Shown in pieces: positions 27,174 to 35,363 of a stretch of DNA of 64,000 nucleotides. The position numbers were made by a program, and so were the translations under genes. The notes below the pieces were generated by a model. It was not told the DNA's origin. It ran no database searches and saw only the letters and a program-made list of their open reading frames with translations. Location of the stretch: assembly GCA_017303715.1 (NCBI GenBank), contig JAFLBZ010000001.1:1-64000 (forward strand), written 5' to 3'. Position 1 is the first letter of the stretch, and each line of letters begins with the position of its first letter. Origin of the DNA: Rhodothermia bacterium. Lineage in GTDB: Bacteria; Bacteroidota; Rhodothermia; Rhodothermales; UBA2364.

Positions 27174-27668
27174 ATGAATCTTTTTCTATGGATACTTTTA
27201 GGCTTTTGCCTAATGGAAATAGCCGCTTATATCTTACATCGCTGGATTTTTCATGGCTGGTTATGGCGGATACACCGCACTCACCACGAAGTTTCAAATA
27301 GCGTTTTTGAACTGAACGATATTTTCTCGGTAGGTTTTGCAGCCATATCAATGGCCATGATGTACTACGGTCTTCAATCTAGTGCAAACCAACATTGGCT
27401 GGGAGCTGGTATCGGGATTGCCGTCTATGGCATCTTATACTTCATCATTCACGACCTCTTTACCCACAAGCGTTTCCGGCCTTTCAAATCGGAAAACGAA
27501 GCCCTTCAAACCATACGTAGGGCACATCAGCGACACCATCAAACCGTAGAAAAAGAAGGATTTGAACCGTATGGACTGTTTTTGTTTCCTTATAGCAAAT
27601 TTAACACCCCATTTATGCGCAAAAACAAACCTCAGCAGGGACAAAAAAAGACCCATGTAGAAGATTGA
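27174..27668 (+). CDS. crtZ: CrtZ-type beta-carotene 3-hydroxylase (fatty acid hydroxylase superfamily)
   Basis: A 164-residue di-iron membrane enzyme with the four His clusters of CrtZ: HRWIFH (about 22-27), HRTHHE (35-40), HDLFTH and HQRHHQ. Two to three hydrophobic segments surround them. CrtZ hydroxylates beta-ionone rings to give zeaxanthin-type pigments, an O2-dependent step. No other carotenoid gene is adjacent, so the symbol rests on the His-box spacing and length alone. A 7-bp hairpin follows 4 nt after its stop. Confidence 0.82.
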   Translation: MNLFLWILLGFCLMEIAAYILHRWIFHGWLWRIHRTHHEVSNSVFELNDIFSVGFAAISMAMMYYGLQSSANQHWLGAGIGIAVYGILYFIIHDLFTHKRFRPFKSENEALQTIRRAHQRHHQTVEKEGFEPYGLFLFPYSKFNTPFMRKNKPQQGQKKTHVED

Positions 27669-27731: not shown

Positions 27732-28682
27732 TTATCCCTCCGTTCCGACGGTACGATGTGCCCTTTCCGACTTCCATTGTTTGAGGTCGCGTAAACATTC
27801 GTGTCCAAATGCCGAGACCGACAATAAAATCATAATACCCGCAAAAAGCCACAAGCCCAAAAACAAGGCAATACCCAGATGAAGGGCAATCATGTTTAAA
27901 AGCCAAAACACCCGAAGGCGGGGAACCCACATGCCAACGCCATACAACGTCTCGATCAAAAGCGTCCACCAACCCAGAAACATTGGTATGAAGGGATAAT
28001 CGGCCACCCAGTACATGTCAATTCCGCTTTTAAAAAACGGATGGGTCATCGAATACCACAGAATATCCCCATTCCACCATTCAAAATTCCAAATTTTGCC
28101 CACACCAGCGGATAAATAGGCAAAACACATATGGACTTGAAGTACACGAATGGCTACCCCAGTCCCCCATGTTGCCTCTGGAGATACCCAACCCAGTTTA
28201 ACGTCTAAAGACCACGCTTTTGAGACCGGAAAAACCATTATATAAAAAAGAGAGATATGCACAAAAATATCCAAACCATAAAAAAATGTTGGAATACTTG
28301 CCATAATGACAATGTGCATAAACCACGAAATCACCGAGAAAATACGGGTGAGCAGCCCAATCGCTACCATGCCTAATGCACCAATATAGACCCAAAAGAA
28401 GACATAAATGCGTGTTTCTTCAGCAATACCCAATGTGCCCAAAAACTGGCTAACGTGTTCCATATGAATTTCCCACGGGTTATTCAATGCCCGCGAGATC
28501 TCCCATTGTATCCAGCCATATTGTCCTACGAAGGCTTCCCAATCTGGAAGCCATAACAAGGCTTGCACAATACAAAACAAGGAAATCGCTATTCTAAAGA
28601 ACCCCAAGGGTTTAGGTGACTGCGGAGTTTCAAAAAAAGCAATTATCCACGCAGTGGCCGATTTTAAGGATAAGGAGGACAT
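27732..28682 (-). CDS. HTTM-domain (vitamin K-dependent gamma-carboxylase-like) membrane protein
   Basis: The 316-residue protein has about eight hydrophobic segments and the HTTM signature: LGFFRIAISLF near the N-terminus, and a central IRVLQVHMCFAYLSAGVGK(196)IW followed by WWNGDILWYSM. In gamma-glutamyl carboxylases this stretch contains the catalytic base Lys; Lys196 lies in the corresponding AG-x-x-K position as far as I can align by eye. It lacks the extracytosolic C-terminal domain of full-length carboxylases, which the 164-residue neighbour could supply. It is the last gene of a four-gene minus-strand run (28710, 29272, 29736). Confidence 0.8.
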   Translation of the reverse strand: MSSLSLKSATAWIIAFFETPQSPKPLGFFRIAISLFCIVQALLWLPDWEAFVGQYGWIQWEISRALNNPWEIHMEHVSQFLGTLGIAEETRIYVFFWVYIGALGMVAIGLLTRIFSVISWFMHIVIMASIPTFFYGLDIFVHISLFYIMVFPVSKAWSLDVKLGWVSPEATWGTGVAIRVLQVHMCFAYLSAGVGKIWNFEWWNGDILWYSMTHPFFKSGIDMYWVADYPFIPMFLGWWTLLIETLYGVGMWVPRLRVFWLLNMIALHLGIALFLGLWLFAGIMILLSVSAFGHECLRDLKQWKSERAHRTVGTEG

Positions 28683-28709
28683 GTTTTTTTGGTTTGGCGA
28701 ACTCCCAAA

Positions 28710-29204
28710 TTATTGGCCTGCAAAGGCCGCAAAATAGACTTCTCGCGGCTGGCTACGCTTCCCCATTTTCCATTCTCGGAGACTTGGATTTTGCATACCC
28801 ATCAAACGAACATCTACCTGAACAGCATCTCGATTTTGGTTCAGCATCCGTACCGCAACCGTATGCGAAAGCAAGTCTTGGTATGTGGTGTCTTGACGAA
28901 TGTAAACACTCAAGCCATAAAAACGGTTATACGATTCATGTGCATGGGTATAATACCGAAACCCTTTCTGGGTGTCTAAAACCACCTTAGAACTATCCCA
29001 TTTATGTAGGGTATATCGTTCAAAAGCCACACTGCCCACCTTTTGCGAAAAGAAACCAAAACTCCAATCACCAAAGTACAGATCGTTCATAACCGCAGTA
29101 AAGTAGCTAAAATTGGTTCTTTCTAACTTGCCGAGAAACTGAAACAAGGCCATTGTCAGAAAGCAAAAATGCACCACCAAAAGGATACGGATAAATTTTC
29201 GCAT
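28710..29204 (-). CDS. Single-span membrane protein, partner of the HTTM protein
   Basis: The frame is open to 29261, but ATG 29204 gives a compact N-terminal membrane anchor (MRKFIRILLVVHFCFLTMALFQF) and about 164 residues. The remainder is a polar, beta-rich extracytosolic domain with aromatic motifs (TNFSYFTAVMNDLYFGDWSFGFFSQKVG). I recognise no named domain; proteins of this type are found beside HTTM proteins. It lies 27 nt upstream of the HTTM gene on the same strand and 67 nt after the nearest secreted paralogue, so operon membership is probable. Confidence 0.6.
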   Translation of the reverse strand: MRKFIRILLVVHFCFLTMALFQFLGKLERTNFSYFTAVMNDLYFGDWSFGFFSQKVGSVAFERYTLHKWDSSKVVLDTQKGFRYYTHAHESYNRFYGLSVYIRQDTTYQDLLSHTVAVRMLNQNRDAVQVDVRLMGMQNPSLREWKMGKRSQPREVYFAAFAGQ

Positions 29205-29271
29205 GAGGGCTTGTAATATAAAAAAGGGAGACAAGAACCAAGCCCGTCTCCCAAAGTTCATTTGAGGGGAC

Positions 29272-29715
29272 TTATTGGTATTTCACCAAAATAGACTGGA
29301 TTTTTTGCGCCTTGGCCTGTCCTACAACCGATTCGAAGGACTTCATGTCCGATTTGTAAATAAACACATAACCCGGATCGCGGGTAATGAAGGTCATTCC
29401 TTGGAGGTCACCGGGGCGTCGAATTTTCGAAACGGCCTTCACCTCAGAAAGCCCCATATTTTTCTTACCGATCGTGCTACCGTCCGAAAAGCGAATAAAA
29501 TATTGGCTGGGATTCACCCCCTTTAACAAGCTCGTCAGTTCTGCTTTGTCGGCGGCATCAATTGTACCCCGACCCAGAATAAAGCCTTGGTGCTGCTGGC
29601 GAAGTGTGGCGATTTTAGCCTCGGTTAGTGCGGGCTGAGCGGCTGCTACGCCTGCCGATAAAACAAGGAAAAACAAGGCCATGAGGCCAAGTTTAGGGTA
29701 TAAAATGTTTTTCAT
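29272..29715 (-). CDS. Small secreted protein, paralogue B of a tandem pair
   Basis: A 147-residue protein with a signal peptide (LGLMALFFLVLSAGVAAA). The mature part of about 120 residues matches the neighbouring gene at 29736 across its whole length; shared blocks are L-K-x-V-N-P-x-x-Y-F-x-R-F-x-D-G, G-K-K-N-x-G-L-x-E-V-K, S-K-I-R-R-P-G and F-E-S-x-V-G-Q. No family is recognised and there are no Cys, HExxH or lipobox motifs. It precedes the HTTM partner and HTTM genes in transcription order. Function unknown; its tandem copy suggests recent duplication with divergence. Confidence 0.75.
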   Translation of the reverse strand: MKNILYPKLGLMALFFLVLSAGVAAAQPALTEAKIATLRQQHQGFILGRGTIDAADKAELTSLLKGVNPSQYFIRFSDGSTIGKKNMGLSEVKAVSKIRRPGDLQGMTFITRDPGYVFIYKSDMKSFESVVGQAKAQKIQSILVKYQ

Positions 29716-29735
29716 ATACGGATGAAGGATTAAAA

Positions 29736-30173
29736 TTAGAAACGGCTGGCAAGTTGTTGAATTTTTAAGGCTTTTTCTTGACCTACCTTAGATTCAAATG
29801 CCTTTAAATCTGATGTGTAAATGTAAATAAATTCAGGCCCTTCTACGATGAAGGTGATGCCTTGTGTGCCACCGGGGCGCCGGATTTTGGACAGGTTCTT
29901 AACTTCAGCAAGTCCTAAATTTTTCTTCCCCATCGTGGTTCCATCTGCAAAGCGGACAAAATAGAGATTGGGATTAACATCTTTGAGCAAGGCTTTCAGT
30001 TGGCTTCGCTCATTAGCAGGCATCGTGCCATTGGCCAATAAAAAACCTTTGTTCGAGGCTTTTAATTGTGCAACCTGTGCAGCTGATAAGGTTTTTTGTG
30101 CGTGTGCTTGGCTGATGATGCCCATCAATAGGACAACAAATAGGCCAATGCCCAGTCTGAAGGGTAATTTCAT
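29736..30173 (-). CDS. Small secreted protein, paralogue A of a tandem pair
   Basis: A 145-residue protein with a signal peptide (LGIGLFVVLLMGIISQAHA/Q). It shares the same mature fold as the 29272 protein: KALLKDVNPNLYFVRFADG, MGKKNLGLAEVK, LSKIRRPGG and LKAFESKVGQEKALKIQ. A 20-nt gap separates the two genes. It is the first gene of the four-gene minus-strand set ending in the HTTM gene. The function is not known. The conserved R-R-P-G and F-x-x-Y-x-S-D motifs may mark a binding surface. Confidence 0.75.
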   Translation of the reverse strand: MKLPFRLGIGLFVVLLMGIISQAHAQKTLSAAQVAQLKASNKGFLLANGTMPANERSQLKALLKDVNPNLYFVRFADGTTMGKKNLGLAEVKNLSKIRRPGGTQGITFIVEGPEFIYIYTSDLKAFESKVGQEKALKIQQLASRF

Positions 30174-30465
30174 GACGATAAAGATTGAGTTATGATTGGT
30201 TAAGGCGGAATGGCGAAAGAAATTGCATTCACAACCACAATATCCGAAAAAGGTTTAATATTTAAAAGGTGTGAAGTCACAATAATTTCATATTCATGAT
30301 TTTTGCTAAAAAACTTATATATCTTTAAACAAAAATATATCTAACCAAATCTTGCAAGGCCATACGCAACGAACACCTTTTGGCTCTATCAAGGCGAGAA
30401 CAACTTGGTAAATTACGATGTTTAAATACGACGAAAAGGAATGGTGTAAGTCGGTGAAGAAGGGC

Positions 30466-30491
30466 AAAAAAAAGCCGACGTAAAGCCGGCT
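30466..30491 (-). terminator. Terminator downstream of tRNA-fMet
   Basis: On the minus strand a 7-bp stem (AGCCGGC/GTCGGCT with one G-U pair; plus coordinates 30473-30479 and 30485-30491) is followed by eight U. It begins 3 nt after the encoded CCA end of the tRNA. Confidence 0.8.
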
Positions 30492-30493
30492 TT

Positions 30494-30568
30494 TGGTTGC
30501 GGGGGCGGGATTCGAACCCACGATCTTTGGGTTATGAGCCCAACGAGATACCACTTCTCCACCCCGCG
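30494..30568 (-). tRNA. tRNA-fMet (initiator, anticodon CAU)
   Basis: The 5' end CGCGGGG pairs with 3' CCCCGC while the first position (C1) faces A72, the mismatch that marks initiator tRNAs. The anticodon stem ends in GGG-CTCATAA-CCC, the three G-C pairs specific to tRNA-fMet, with CAT as anticodon. The T arm is GTGGG-TTCGAAT-CCCGC. The CCA end is encoded (30494-30496). A strong TTTG/TATATTTG promoter lies upstream and a rho-independent terminator directly downstream, so the gene appears to be a single-gene transcription unit. Confidence 0.95.
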
Positions 30569-30585
30569 CTGTTATATTAGGAAGG

Positions 30586-30617
30586 CAAATATAAGGCAAA
30601 AGACGTCCCACTGCAAA
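30586..30617 (-). promoter_or_regulatory. Bacteroidetes-type promoter of the initiator tRNA gene
   Basis: On the minus strand the -33 element TTTG (30617-30614) is separated by 20 nt from the -7 element TATATTTG (30593-30586), a perfect match to TAnnTTTG. The expected start is about 10 nt before the tRNA 5' end at 30568. Confidence 0.7.
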
Positions 30618-30631
30618 CACCTCACAGTTCT

Positions 30632-32140
30632 TCATGATTGTTTAACGCTTTCCAACCAAGCATCAAAAAGATTTTGCAGGTTTTGTTCATGCTGATGTTG
30701 CTCATAGATCCGGGCCGGTGCCGCCCGATCGGTACAAGAAAGTGCAGACAAGCTACAACGCTCACAGGTTTCATTCACCTGTATAGCAGCAATGGCGGGA
30801 TCATTCCAGAATTTGACCACCGATTTAAGATTTTCGTCCACCATCAACCCAATATTGATGGCAGACAAATGGCGATCCTTCAGCAATAACCTACGCGAAA
30901 TGGAAAAAGTTAAAAAGCTGGCATTTGCATCCATAAAATTTAGCCGTTTTAGGCTGGTGGTTTCTTGGTGCGGGGTTGTAGGTGGGAACTGGGAGAGCGC
31001 ACGTAATTGCGTGAGCGCCGTCCACCTCCGGCAGTAATGTTCATTCAAGCCTTTTCCATGATACATAAATACGGGCGAGAGGTTTAAACGTTTGGTCAAC
31101 AAAAAGTCATCTGAACCAATCGGGTGTGTAAATCGTTGATAATACAAGTGTTGGAGGCCCATTTTTCCCGGAATAAGTTGGCTTAACCGATAAAGAAAAA
31201 GTTCGGGTGTAACGTCATAATGGGCTTTGATCTGCGAAAAATGAGCGGGATCCCACTTCGGTTTTGAGAAGAGCTTCATCAATTCATTTACAATCGCATC
31301 CCCGTCCAACATGACGGCTCCAGCAAAGTAGGAGGCTTTAAAATAGGAGAGTAATCCTTCAAACGTTTTTGACGGGCCGATATGACTTCCAGAAACCATG
31401 GGCGCATCTGGCAAATTCAAAATTTTGAATCCCAATTCCCTTAATTGAATGAAGATGCGTTGTGAAGACCAAAGTTTGGGGTTGATAAGCAGTCTCTCCG
31501 GTTTACCTTCAATCCGAATTGAACGTATTTCAGGCATTTCCAATACATTGGGCAGACTATCGAAAAGGACGTTTTGGCTAAAGTGAGTTTTTGCCAGATG
31601 GATTAATGCTGCACCTTGTGGATCGTTTTGCAGTGTCCATTGGAAGGTTTTTCGGAACATAGTGGCCGCTTCTTCCAATTCTTGAAAATAATTCTTTTTC
31701 ATGGCTTGGAATGACCGAAGTGCAGCATGTAGAAAGTGGTCTATATGCATATCGTACTCTCCCACAATCTCCGTCAAGGTTTGAATGAGAGCGGATGCAC
31801 TGTGTGGCTCGCCCGACACCAATTCCAAAAGGTCTTGCCCGGTAATCCCAAAAATTTCAAAGGGGAAGGACTGCATCATCTCCGACCCAAGGAGCGATTT
31901 CAGGGGATCCAGTTGATCGGCAAGTTGAGTGGAGACCAAGTTATCAAATGGCAAATCCAAGACCTGCGACAACAAGAGCAGTTTTTCCGGCTTCGGGTAT
32001 TTTTTCGCTTTCTCAATCTCGCTAAGGTATGAGATCGAAAGGCCCGTTTTTTCCGCAAGATCTCGCAGGGAATAATTTAGCTTCGTTCGCTGCTGTTTGA
32101 TTTTAAGCCCAAGGATAAAGCGTAGATTTTCAGAAGTCAT
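30632..32140 (-). CDS. RamB-like XRE regulator (HTH plus DUF2083 short-chain fatty acyl regulator family)
   Basis: The 502-residue protein has an N-terminal XRE helix-turn-helix at about residues 8-60 (IKQQRTKLNYSLRDLAEKTG, then SISYLSEIEKAKKYPKPEKL), a long middle region, and a C-terminal Cys cluster Cys459, Cys462 and Cys469 in the CERCSLSALSC motif typical of the DUF2083 tail. Members such as Corynebacterium RamB control acetate and glyoxylate genes. It is divergent from aceB with 195 bp between them, which contain several GCGAA elements. Regulation of aceBA by this protein is inferred from this layout. No HExxH is evident in the middle region, although related proteins carry an IrrE-like domain. 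Confidence 0.83.
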   Translation of the reverse strand: MTSENLRFILGLKIKQQRTKLNYSLRDLAEKTGLSISYLSEIEKAKKYPKPEKLLLLSQVLDLPFDNLVSTQLADQLDPLKSLLGSEMMQSFPFEIFGITGQDLLELVSGEPHSASALIQTLTEIVGEYDMHIDHFLHAALRSFQAMKKNYFQELEEAATMFRKTFQWTLQNDPQGAALIHLAKTHFSQNVLFDSLPNVLEMPEIRSIRIEGKPERLLINPKLWSSQRIFIQLRELGFKILNLPDAPMVSGSHIGPSKTFEGLLSYFKASYFAGAVMLDGDAIVNELMKLFSKPKWDPAHFSQIKAHYDVTPELFLYRLSQLIPGKMGLQHLYYQRFTHPIGSDDFLLTKRLNLSPVFMYHGKGLNEHYCRRWTALTQLRALSQFPPTTPHQETTSLKRLNFMDANASFLTFSISRRLLLKDRHLSAINIGLMVDENLKSVVKFWNDPAIAAIQVNETCERCSLSALSCTDRAAPARIYEQHQHEQNLQNLFDAWLESVKQS

Positions 32141-32335: not shown

Positions 32336-33973
32336 ATGGAAGAAATGATCGAAAAAGTTGACTTTTTTCCGGAAGCGCTTTCGGAAAAGACTATGATTCA
32401 CAGCCCTGCACTGACCCCAAAAGCGGCCACTATTCTAACACCACAGGTAGTAGCCGTGCTTGAAAAGCTCCACAATCGCTTTGAACCTGCACGAAAACAA
32501 CTTTTGGAAACACGCCAAAATCGCCAAAAGGACTATGACGCGGGCAAGGTTCCGACGTACCTCCATGAAGAAAATTCGGAAGCACGCTCGGAATGGCAAG
32601 TCCCCGAAATCCCAAAAGATTTGCGAAGAAGAAGAGTGGAAATAACGGGGCCGGTGAACAGTGCCAAAATGGTGATTCAGATGCTCAACCGTAACGAACA
32701 AGGTTTTCGTGCGGATACGGCGATGTTGGACTTCGAGGACTCCATGAAGCCAACTTGGCAAAATGTGGTAGAGGGGGTATTAAACGTGATTGCCGTTGCC
32801 GAGAACCGGTTAGAAACCGTAGAAAACGGAAAACACTACGTTTTGCATCCAGAAGATCAAGCCGTGATGATGGTACGTGTTCGCGGCTTGGCCTTAGACG
32901 AATCAAACATCAGGATCAATGGCAAGGCCATCTCCGGTGGTTTGTTTGACTTGGTTTTGACGTGGATGCACACGGCGGAGAAGTTGATTCAACAGGGTAA
33001 AACGCCCAAGTATTATATCCCAAAAACCGAATATCACGAGGAGGCCCGTTGGTGGAATGCCGTTTTCTCGGCCTTAGAGTCCGAGATTGGGGTTTCAGAA
33101 GGGACATTACGCGCCACATTTCTGATCGAGACGTTGCCCGCTGCCTTCCAAATGGAGGAGATTCTGTACGAATTTCGCACCCATGCGGCAGGAATGAATG
33201 TGGGGCGTTGGGATAAAATTTTTAGCGACATTAAAGTGCTTAAGAACCACCCAGATAGGGTTATGGGAGACCGCGCAACCATCACCATCAAGCCCGATAC
33301 ACCTTGGATGTACCAGTATGCCCGAAGATTGATACAGGTATGCCACAAACATGGTGCTTTTGCTATTGGCGGAATGGCAGCCTTTACGCCCGGTAAAACA
33401 CCCGAATTACGCGCCGAACAAATGGCGAAAGTGGTTGCAGACAAGCAATTAGAAGCCTCGCTTGGGCACGACGGTTGCTGGGTATCTCATCCCTACTTTA
33501 TTGGATCGGCGCTGAAACAATTTACGCGAAACAACCAATTGGATGTTTTACAAGACGATCTTGAGGATTATCCAGACTTGTTGCCCAAAAGTCGAGGGCC
33601 ATATACCATCGAAGGTCTTCGCACCAATGTTCGGGTTGGGATTGCTTATTTGGAAGGCTGGAACCGTGGTATTGGCTGCGTGGCATGGGACAATCTGATG
33701 GAAGACTTGGCAACCTTAGAAATATCTCGCGCACAAATTGGGCAATGGCTTAAACATGGCATTGTGCTAAAGAGCGGAGAAAAAGTAACAAGAGAATTTG
33801 TTTCTACTATTTTCTCTGAAGAGTTACAAAGAATAGAAGACGAATTAATAGAGGCAAATGCAAGTGTACACGTTTTGGAGTGCTTCCGAAAAGCTGCTGA
33901 AGATGCAAAGACACTTTTTCTACAAGAAGAATTTCATCCACACTTGGCCTTGTGTTCTGAATTGGCCCACTAA
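32336..33973 (+). CDS. aceB: Malate synthase A
   Basis: The 545-residue protein has the malate synthase A sequence pattern: RRRRVEITGPVNS-type start of the barrel, TAMLDFEDSMKPTW, IETLPAAFQMEEILYE, and GRWDKIFSDIKVLKNHPD followed by GGMAAFTPGK. It condenses glyoxylate and acetyl-CoA to malate, the second step of the glyoxylate shunt. Length is that of the A isoform, not the 720-residue G isoform. ATG 32336 is used; a second ATG lies 9 nt later. The isocitrate lyase gene follows after 118 nt, so both are likely induced together. Confidence 0.95.
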   Translation: MEEMIEKVDFFPEALSEKTMIHSPALTPKAATILTPQVVAVLEKLHNRFEPARKQLLETRQNRQKDYDAGKVPTYLHEENSEARSEWQVPEIPKDLRRRRVEITGPVNSAKMVIQMLNRNEQGFRADTAMLDFEDSMKPTWQNVVEGVLNVIAVAENRLETVENGKHYVLHPEDQAVMMVRVRGLALDESNIRINGKAISGGLFDLVLTWMHTAEKLIQQGKTPKYYIPKTEYHEEARWWNAVFSALESEIGVSEGTLRATFLIETLPAAFQMEEILYEFRTHAAGMNVGRWDKIFSDIKVLKNHPDRVMGDRATITIKPDTPWMYQYARRLIQVCHKHGAFAIGGMAAFTPGKTPELRAEQMAKVVADKQLEASLGHDGCWVSHPYFIGSALKQFTRNNQLDVLQDDLEDYPDLLPKSRGPYTIEGLRTNVRVGIAYLEGWNRGIGCVAWDNLMEDLATLEISRAQIGQWLKHGIVLKSGEKVTREFVSTIFSEELQRIEDELIEANASVHVLECFRKAAEDAKTLFLQEEFHPHLALCSELAH

Positions 33974-34091: not shown

Positions 34092-35363
34092 ATGGAAATC
34101 CAACACTATATGCAAACAGATTGGGCGAACAACCCACGCTGGGCTGGCATAACGCGCCCGTACTCGGTTCAAGATGTGTTACGGCTACGCGGAAATTTCA
34201 GAATTGAATATACCCTTGCACGTCTTGGGGCAGAAAGGCTGTGGTCTTTGTTGCAAACCGAAGACTTTGTAAATGCCTTAGGGGCGCTAACCGGCAACCA
34301 AGCCATGCAGCAGGTACGAGCCGGATTAAAAGCCATTTATCTTTCTGGATGGCAAGTAGCAGCAGACGCCAACTTAGCTGGAGACATGTATCCCGATCAA
34401 AGCCTATATCCGGCCAATAGTGTTCCTGCCGTTGTAAAACGCATTAACAATACCCTTCTACGGGCGGATCAGGTGATTAGTGCCGAAGGCGGAACAAATG
34501 ATGTCCATTGGCTGGCTCCAATTATTGCAGATGCAGAAGCCGGATTTGGCGGGGTTTTAAATGCCTATGAGTTGATGAAGGCTATGATTGAGGCCGGAGC
34601 CGCAGGCGTCCACTTTGAAGACCAACTTTCTTCTGAAAAAAAATGTGGTCACTTGGGTGGTAAAGTACTGGTTCCAACCAACGAGGCCATCAAGAAATTG
34701 GTTGCTGCCCGCCTCGCTGCTGACGTCTGTGATGTTCCAACACTCTTGATTGCCCGCACCGACGCCGATGCCGCAACCCTGCTAACCAGTGATATTGACG
34801 AACGGGATCGCGAATATTGCACAGGAGAGCGCACTTCGGAGGGCTTCTTTAGGATCAAAAATGGCCTTCCAACTGCCATTGCACGCGGTTTGGCGTATGC
34901 GCCTTATGCAGATTTGATTTGGTGCGAAACGTCAAAACCAGATTTGGATGAGGCGAAAACATTTGCCGAAGGTATCCACAAAACCTTCCCGGGCAAAATG
35001 TTGGCCTATAATTGCTCACCTTCGTTTAATTGGAGCAAAAACTTAGATGCCACAACGATTGCTAAATTCCAACGCGAATTGGGGGCAATGGGGTATAAGT
35101 TCCAGTTTATCACCTTGGCCGGCTTTCATGCGCTCAATTATGGCATGTTCGACTTGGCATATGGCTATGCACGGAACCAAATGCCGGCGTTTGTGGAACT
35201 TCAAAATAAAGAGTTTGCTGCTGCCGATCGCGGCTTTACGGCTGTAAAACACCAGCGCGAAGTGGGCACAGGCTTCTTTGACGAGATCACCAATATTGTA
35301 TCCGGCGGGATGGCCTCCACAACCGCTTTGGCGGGTTCCACCGAAGCAGATCAGTTCCATTGA
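34092..35363 (+). CDS. aceA: Isocitrate lyase
   Basis: A 423-residue protein with the isocitrate lyase signature [11 protein letters not shown]; the catalytic Cys is Cys185. It splits isocitrate to succinate and glyoxylate. The first ATG is preceded by a good ribosome binding site (AAGGAG at about 34079-34084). It follows aceB by 118 nt and ends in a clear terminator at 35386-35416. Length is typical of the bacterial enzyme (about 430 residues). The glyoxylate pair implies growth on acetate or fatty acids. Confidence 0.95.

What the first reader, a model, noticed from the sequence alone, without database searches (positions are those of the whole stretch)
27732..30173. HTTM cassette: two tandem secreted paralogues, a membrane partner and a gamma-carboxylase-like protein
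Seen: four same-strand genes spaced 20, about 67 and 27 nt apart. The first two encode 145- and 147-residue secreted proteins that match along their full length, the third a single-span protein with a beta-rich outer domain, the fourth an HTTM protein with Lys196 in an AG-x-x-K segment like the one around the catalytic base of vitamin K-dependent gamma-carboxylases. Known: HTTM is the membrane core of those carboxylases, which modify secreted proteins. Inference: the small secreted proteins could be substrates or ligands of a split carboxylase-like enzyme, with the single-span protein supplying the missing outer domain. I know of no described system with this make-up.
Basis: partly seen in the sequence, partly recalled or inferred. 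Interest (0 to 1): 0.65.

Follow-up and report, generated by a model that had tools for sequence, protein, structure and literature searches.

The report
SdpAB-like cassette with unusual cargo
Four neighbouring bacterial genes look like a two-part membrane enzyme, a distant cousin of both the Bacillus SDP-toxin maturation pair and the human blood-clotting carboxylase, together with two related small exported proteins that are probably what it processes; what chemistry it does is still open.

Summary
In detail: four minus-strand genes (145, 147, 164 and 316 aa; gaps 20, 67, 27 nt) under strong purifying selection and conserved as a block in all three genomes of the genus. The fourth protein is a remote HTTM protein. 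Its family profile matches human GGCX (E 3e-11), with Lys196 on the catalytic base Lys218, and this Lys is invariant in all HTTM proteins I aligned. However, the Glu-binding Asn159-His160 of carboxylases is replaced by a G-x-D motif, so Glu carboxylation is not supported. The make-up is not without precedent: it is that of the sdpABC toxin system (SdpA single-span, SdpB HTTM, SdpC exported). The window protein's only significant curated match is SdpB (E 1e-8, far below cut-off). A tree puts it in a third clade, apart from SdpB proper and carboxylases. Across Bacteroidota the same order (small exported proteins, often tandem; single-span partner; HTTM) recurs with unrelated small proteins, some SdpC-like. 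In several loci a terminator-like hairpin separates small genes from enzyme genes. P1/P2 occur only in this genus, always beside the HTTM gene. Best reading: a split SdpAB-like maturation enzyme with its own two substrates. Function is inferred, not shown.

The parts
29736..30173 (-). P1: 145-aa exported protein, candidate substrate; basic, no Cys, no internal hydrophobic segment
   Evidence: ORF; paralogue of P2; composition and dN/dS; hydropathy; genus-only family
29272..29715 (-). P2: 147-aa exported paralogue of P1, candidate substrate
   Evidence: ORF; 51% identity to P1, E 8e-51; dN/dS
29226..29252 (-). Terminator-like hairpin (10 bp, then T6) between P2 and the partner gene; a hairpin of different sequence stands at the same place in both sister genomes; possible attenuator giving more substrate than enzyme
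28710..29204 (-). Partner: single-span protein with W-S-F-G-F-F-S-Q motif; distant SdpA/DUF5819-like
   Evidence: z = 7 against the L044 partner, 0 of 300 shuffles as high; hhalign E 4.7e-4 to the partner family of its HTTM clade; hydropathy
27732..28682 (-). SdpB-like HTTM protein, 316 aa, Lys196 = GGCX Lys218, G-x-D at 136-138 in place of the carboxylase N-H
   Evidence: TIGR04033 E 1.1e-8; GGCX profile match; alignment; tree

Best explanation
The cassette encodes a split, SdpAB-like maturation enzyme of the cell envelope and its own two substrates. P1 and P2 are exported by the general secretion route; the partner (SdpA-like, one span plus outer domain) and the HTTM protein (SdpB-like) form a membrane complex that modifies or helps cleave them on the outer face of the inner membrane, with Lys196 acting as a base as Lys218 does in GGCX, perhaps with a reduced menaquinone as cofactor. 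Shown: gene order, conservation, homology of the HTTM protein, the invariant Lys, and recurrence of the arrangement. Inferred: the complex, the substrate relation, the chemistry and the cofactor.
For: Whole block conserved in 3 of 3 genus members and under purifying selection. The only significant curated hit of the HTTM protein is SdpB, E 1.1e-8. Tree: window genus plus flavobacterial clade 98/93, separate from SdpC-associated SdpB (100/100) and carboxylases incl. GGCX (100/99). The order small exported protein(s) - single-span partner - HTTM recurs across Bacteroidota: a partner in about 26 of 29 loci read, a small exported neighbour in about 20, with bona fide SdpA/SdpB and SdpC-like proteins in some. 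Tandem small genes are seen again in L050, L056, L060, L063, L095. A terminator-like hairpin lies between small gene and next gene in 6 of 18 loci against 7 of 156 other gene pairs, p = 6e-4, and in all three genus members. SdpA and SdpB are required to process SdpC into SDP (PMC6818787). P1/P2 are found only beside this HTTM gene.
Against: No family cut-off is met: SdpB 35 of 178.4 bits, no SdpA or SdpC hit. P1/P2 have no hydrophobic toxin segment and no Cys. Pairwise comparison of P1/P2 with other small exported neighbours is not convincing. Partner homology rests on modest profile scores. No structure of the complex; both AlphaFold models are weak. The hairpin test was devised after seeing the hairpins, and gap-matched it gives 4 of 11 against 2 of 46, p = 0.01.
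Confidence: 0.6

Rival explanations
1. A true split gamma-glutamyl carboxylase: Glu residues of P1/P2 become Gla, with vitamin K (menaquinone) hydroquinone as cofactor.
For: Lys196 on Lys218, Trp202 on Trp223, His268 on His287, Phe280 on Phe299; profile match to GGCX.
Against: Asn159 and His160, which hold the Glu (PMC12589487), are replaced by G-x-D in the window protein and in nearly all SdpB-like proteins, while bacterial carboxylases keep N-H. No detectable PF22777 lumenal domain in the partner. P1/P2 hold 4-6 scattered Glu, only one at a position shared by all six sequences. Separate clade from carboxylases.
Confidence: 0.08
2. An SDP-like toxin system: P1/P2 are precursors of a secreted killing peptide released with the help of partner and HTTM protein.
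For: Same make-up as sdpABC and yitPOM, which make toxins (PMC6818787); SdpC-like proteins stand in the same place in other loci; P1/P2 are cationic, tandem and evolve somewhat faster than the partner; hairpin after the precursor genes.
Against: No hydrophobic segment or Cys in P1/P2; no adjacent immunity gene and no SdpI over cut-off in the genome; cassette kept in all three genus members rather than patchy.
Confidence: 0.2
3. No enzyme-substrate relation: P1/P2 are envelope proteins that merely share an operon with, or form a structural complex with, the HTTM-partner pair.
For: The hairpin allows separate expression; no experiment links them; some HTTM-partner pairs have no small neighbour.
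Against: Recurrent small exported neighbours of unrelated sequence next to the same pair; precedent of SdpC.
Confidence: 0.12

Closest known systems
sdpABC / yitPOM toxin systems (SdpA PF17418/TIGR04034, SdpB TIGR04033, SdpC TIGR04032)
   Same: Single-span partner plus HTTM protein plus exported small protein in one operon; HTTM protein hits SdpB at E 1e-8; genuine SdpAB with SdpC-like neighbours occur in other Bacteroidota.
   Different: Scores far below the SdpB cut-off, no SdpA or SdpC hit, separate clade in the tree, substrates without a toxin-like hydrophobic segment, small genes first in the operon and duplicated, no SdpI-type gene.
Vitamin K-dependent gamma-carboxylase (GGCX, bacterial VKGC; PF05090 + PF22777)
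   Same: HTTM domain by profile; base Lys, Trp223, His287, Phe299 equivalents.
   Different: Two chains; G-x-D instead of N-H in the Glu pocket; PF22777 not detected; different clade.
DUF5819 (PF19136) partner proteins and HTTM + W-x-M-F-A fusion proteins (L025, L026, L031, L033)
   Same: Single-span or C-terminal outer domain with a W-x-x-F motif beside or fused to HTTM.
   Different: No direct hit of the window partner to PF19136; the link is through intermediate profiles.

Membership tests
sdpABC system | SdpB model TIGR04033 over its cut-off (178.4 bits) | tested here: not met
   35.1 bits, E 1.1e-8
sdpABC system | SdpA (TIGR04034/PF17418) partner | tested here: not met
   no hit of the window partner; only a distant profile link
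sdpABC system | SdpC-type exported precursor with hydrophobic toxin segment | tested here: not met
   no TIGR04032 hit; no internal hydrophobic segment
sdpABC system | SdpI-type immunity protein | tested here: not met
   none adjacent; best PF13630 hit in the genome 17.9 bits, cut-off 28.2
sdpABC system | SdpA and SdpB needed to process the exported precursor | not testable with these tools
   needs expression and mass spectrometry
Vitamin K-dependent gamma-carboxylase | base Lys218 | tested here: met
   Lys196
Vitamin K-dependent gamma-carboxylase | Asn159-His160 of the Glu pocket | tested here: not met
   Gly136-Leu137-Asp138
Vitamin K-dependent gamma-carboxylase | lumenal domain PF22777, same chain or partner | tested here: not met
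   no hit; hhalign of partner sets against carboxylase lumenal domains not significant
HTTM domain (PF05090) | curated model match | tested here: not met
   no hit at E<=1 for the window protein; homology shown only through the A2 profile
DUF5819 (PF19136) | model match of the partner | tested here: not met
   no hit

The most novel reading that the evidence does not exclude
A third lineage of split HTTM enzymes, beside SdpAB and the vitamin K carboxylases, in which a detached outer-domain subunit delivers small exported proteins of many unrelated sequences to a quinol-and-lysine active site for a modification other than Glu carboxylation, possibly through a common C-terminal helix ending in an aromatic residue.
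Probability: 0.3. Interest if true: 0.75.

Novelty: new variant of a known kind. Interest (0 to 1): 0.5.

Why it matters
What SdpA and SdpB actually do to SdpC is not settled as far as I know. The profile link between SdpB-like proteins and GGCX, with the base Lys kept and the Glu pocket replaced by G-x-D, makes a direct test possible: does Lys196 (or its SdpB equivalent) catalyse a quinol-coupled modification of the exported precursor? A clade whose small proteins look soluble and non-toxic would be easier to study than the membrane toxin SDP.

Tried and rejected
Searching P1/P2 in Pfam, NCBIfam, PDB sequences, phage and plasmid records: nothing. A scan of all GTDB contigs found only the sister genome UBA2364, though that scan reaches only fairly close relatives. 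Phylum-wide profile search gave weak stray hits without context (G298, E 1.5e-4, no HTTM on its 3.7-kb contig). The idea that the partner is a detached carboxylase lumenal domain was attractive (same order: span, about 23 residues, W-x-x-M/F motif, strands) but profile comparison gave no support, so I do not claim it. Similarity of P1/P2 to the L044 lipoprotein, suggested by eye, was not borne out by shuffling. A first hairpin test with a loose definition was not significant (p = 0.07); only the stricter stem gave p = 6e-4. Literature searches linking SdpB with HTTM, vitamin K or DUF5819 found no paper in the held library.

Full report
What is there. P1 and P2 are tandem paralogues (51% identity, E 8e-51), each with one N-terminal hydrophobic stretch, no Cys and a net positive charge. 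Against the two sister genomes all four genes have dN far below dS (for the partner 0.08 against saturated dS). The block occurs complete in the three genomes of the genus held; one of them is the MAG Bacteroidetes bacterium UBA2364. By its relatives the organism looks like a member of the Rhodothermales (inference from genome sizes, not shown).

What the HTTM protein is. Alone it has no Pfam or PDB hit; its one significant curated match is SdpB, TIGR04033, E 1.1e-8 but 35 bits against a cut-off of 178. Its own genome holds no other such protein. With four homologues found by sequence search it makes a profile that hits human GGCX at E 2.7e-11. In that alignment Lys196 falls on Lys218, Trp202 on Trp223, His268 on His287 and Phe280 on Phe299; Lys218 is the base that deprotonates vitamin K hydroquinone, and Trp223 and Phe299 line the quinone pocket (PMC12589487). 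In a joint alignment of SdpB-like, fusion and carboxylase HTTM proteins the Lys is present in all. But Asn159-His160, which hold the substrate Glu in GGCX, are N-H in bacterial carboxylases and are replaced by G-x-D in the window protein (136-138) and nearly all SdpB-like proteins. So the base and part of the quinone site look kept, the Glu site does not. A maximum-likelihood tree puts the window genus with a flavobacterial clade (98/93), apart from the SdpC-associated SdpB proteins (100/100) and from the carboxylases with GGCX (100/99); some long branches make deeper joins unsure. That Pfam's HTTM model also rings in Bacillus subtilis over its cut-off (control genomes) fits SdpB and YitO being HTTM proteins.

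What surrounds its relatives. I read 29 loci of SdpB-like HTTM genes outside the genus (crude ORF picking and hydropathy). About 26 have a single-span protein of 165-230 aa directly upstream, typically with a W-x-x-F-[AST] or G-[YF]-x-F-F-[AS]-P-N motif; some are SdpA over the curated cut-off or DUF5819. About 20 have one to three small exported proteins just upstream. In L054, L056, L057, L059, L060, L061 and L063 these look SdpC-like (four tested: TIGR04032 E 1e-12 to 1e-19, below cut-off); in L044, L047, L048, L050, L051, L052, L062, L090, L091, L093, L094 and L095 they are unrelated and unnamed. Tandem pairs or triplets, as in the window, occur in L050, L056, L060, L063 and L095. Four proteins of about 500 aa carry HTTM and a W-x-M-F outer domain in one chain (L025, L026, L031, L033), and their C-terminal parts match the separate partners (hhalign E 4e-5; 7e-5). 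The window partner is linked to the partners of its own clade (z 7 against L044; hhalign E 4.7e-4), and those to the DUF5819/SdpA sets more weakly (E 5e-4). No link to the carboxylase lumenal domain was found.

The hairpin. Between P2 and the partner lies a 10-bp hairpin with a T6 tail (29252-29226); both sister genomes keep a 10-11-bp hairpin with T-rich tail there though its sequence differs. Similar strong hairpins stand between small gene and next gene in 6 of 18 other loci, against 7 of 156 other neighbouring pairs (p 6e-4; gap-matched p 0.01). That is how one would make more substrate than enzyme, but the test was devised after the fact.

P1 and P2. In the window's HTTM clade most small proteins end in a short amphipathic helix with a final Tyr or Phe (IQQLASRF, IQSILVKYQ, LEGVIQQYR, IDAVMDNYR, LDEMMHRYMNQ, LDNIMFRYVRQ, LKSMLDRF). 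The pattern was drawn from the same sequences, so it is a lead only.

Verdict. The cassette is best read as a split SdpAB-like maturation pair with its own two exported substrates. It works like sdpABC, in which SdpA and SdpB are needed to process the exported SdpC (PMC6818787), but it is not a member by the curated models, and it is not a vitamin K carboxylase.

Noticed in passing
30632-32140 (-), 32336-33973 (+), 34092-35363 (+): A 502-aa HTH regulator with weak RamB (E 8e-6) and IrrE-domain similarity is divergent from malate synthase and isocitrate lyase: a RamB-like control of the glyoxylate shunt is likely. In two sister genomes the regulator lies directly upstream of the cassette too.
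   Followed up: partly
30494-30568 (-): tRNA-Met (CAU) between the regulator and P1; the 106-aa ORF at 30315-30635 overlaps it and is probably not a gene.
   Followed up: yes
27174-27668 (+): Fatty-acid/carotene hydroxylase-like gene (PF04116) convergent with the HTTM gene and kept there in all three genomes of the genus; possible functional link not tested.
   Followed up: no
L093 4006-6630, L094 3291-5933: Flavobacterial loci with an 80-aa two-Cys exported peptide, a 272-279-aa exported protein containing a GLPGLV motif, partner, HTTM protein and then an 860-aa probable outer-membrane receptor: a larger version of the same cassette.
   Followed up: no
L050 6741-7390: Two tandem 103-105-aa exported proteins with glycine/alanine-rich hydrophobic cores and a shared NDFSxFD end, next to a partner-HTTM pair: look like bacteriocin precursors.
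   Followed up: no
L025, L026, L031, L033: Natural single-chain fusions of HTTM with a W-x-M-F outer domain, not carboxylases by Pfam.
   Followed up: partly
L058 5028-6476: A carboxylase-like protein split into two adjacent ORFs (300 and 175 aa), either a natural split or a frameshift.
   Followed up: no
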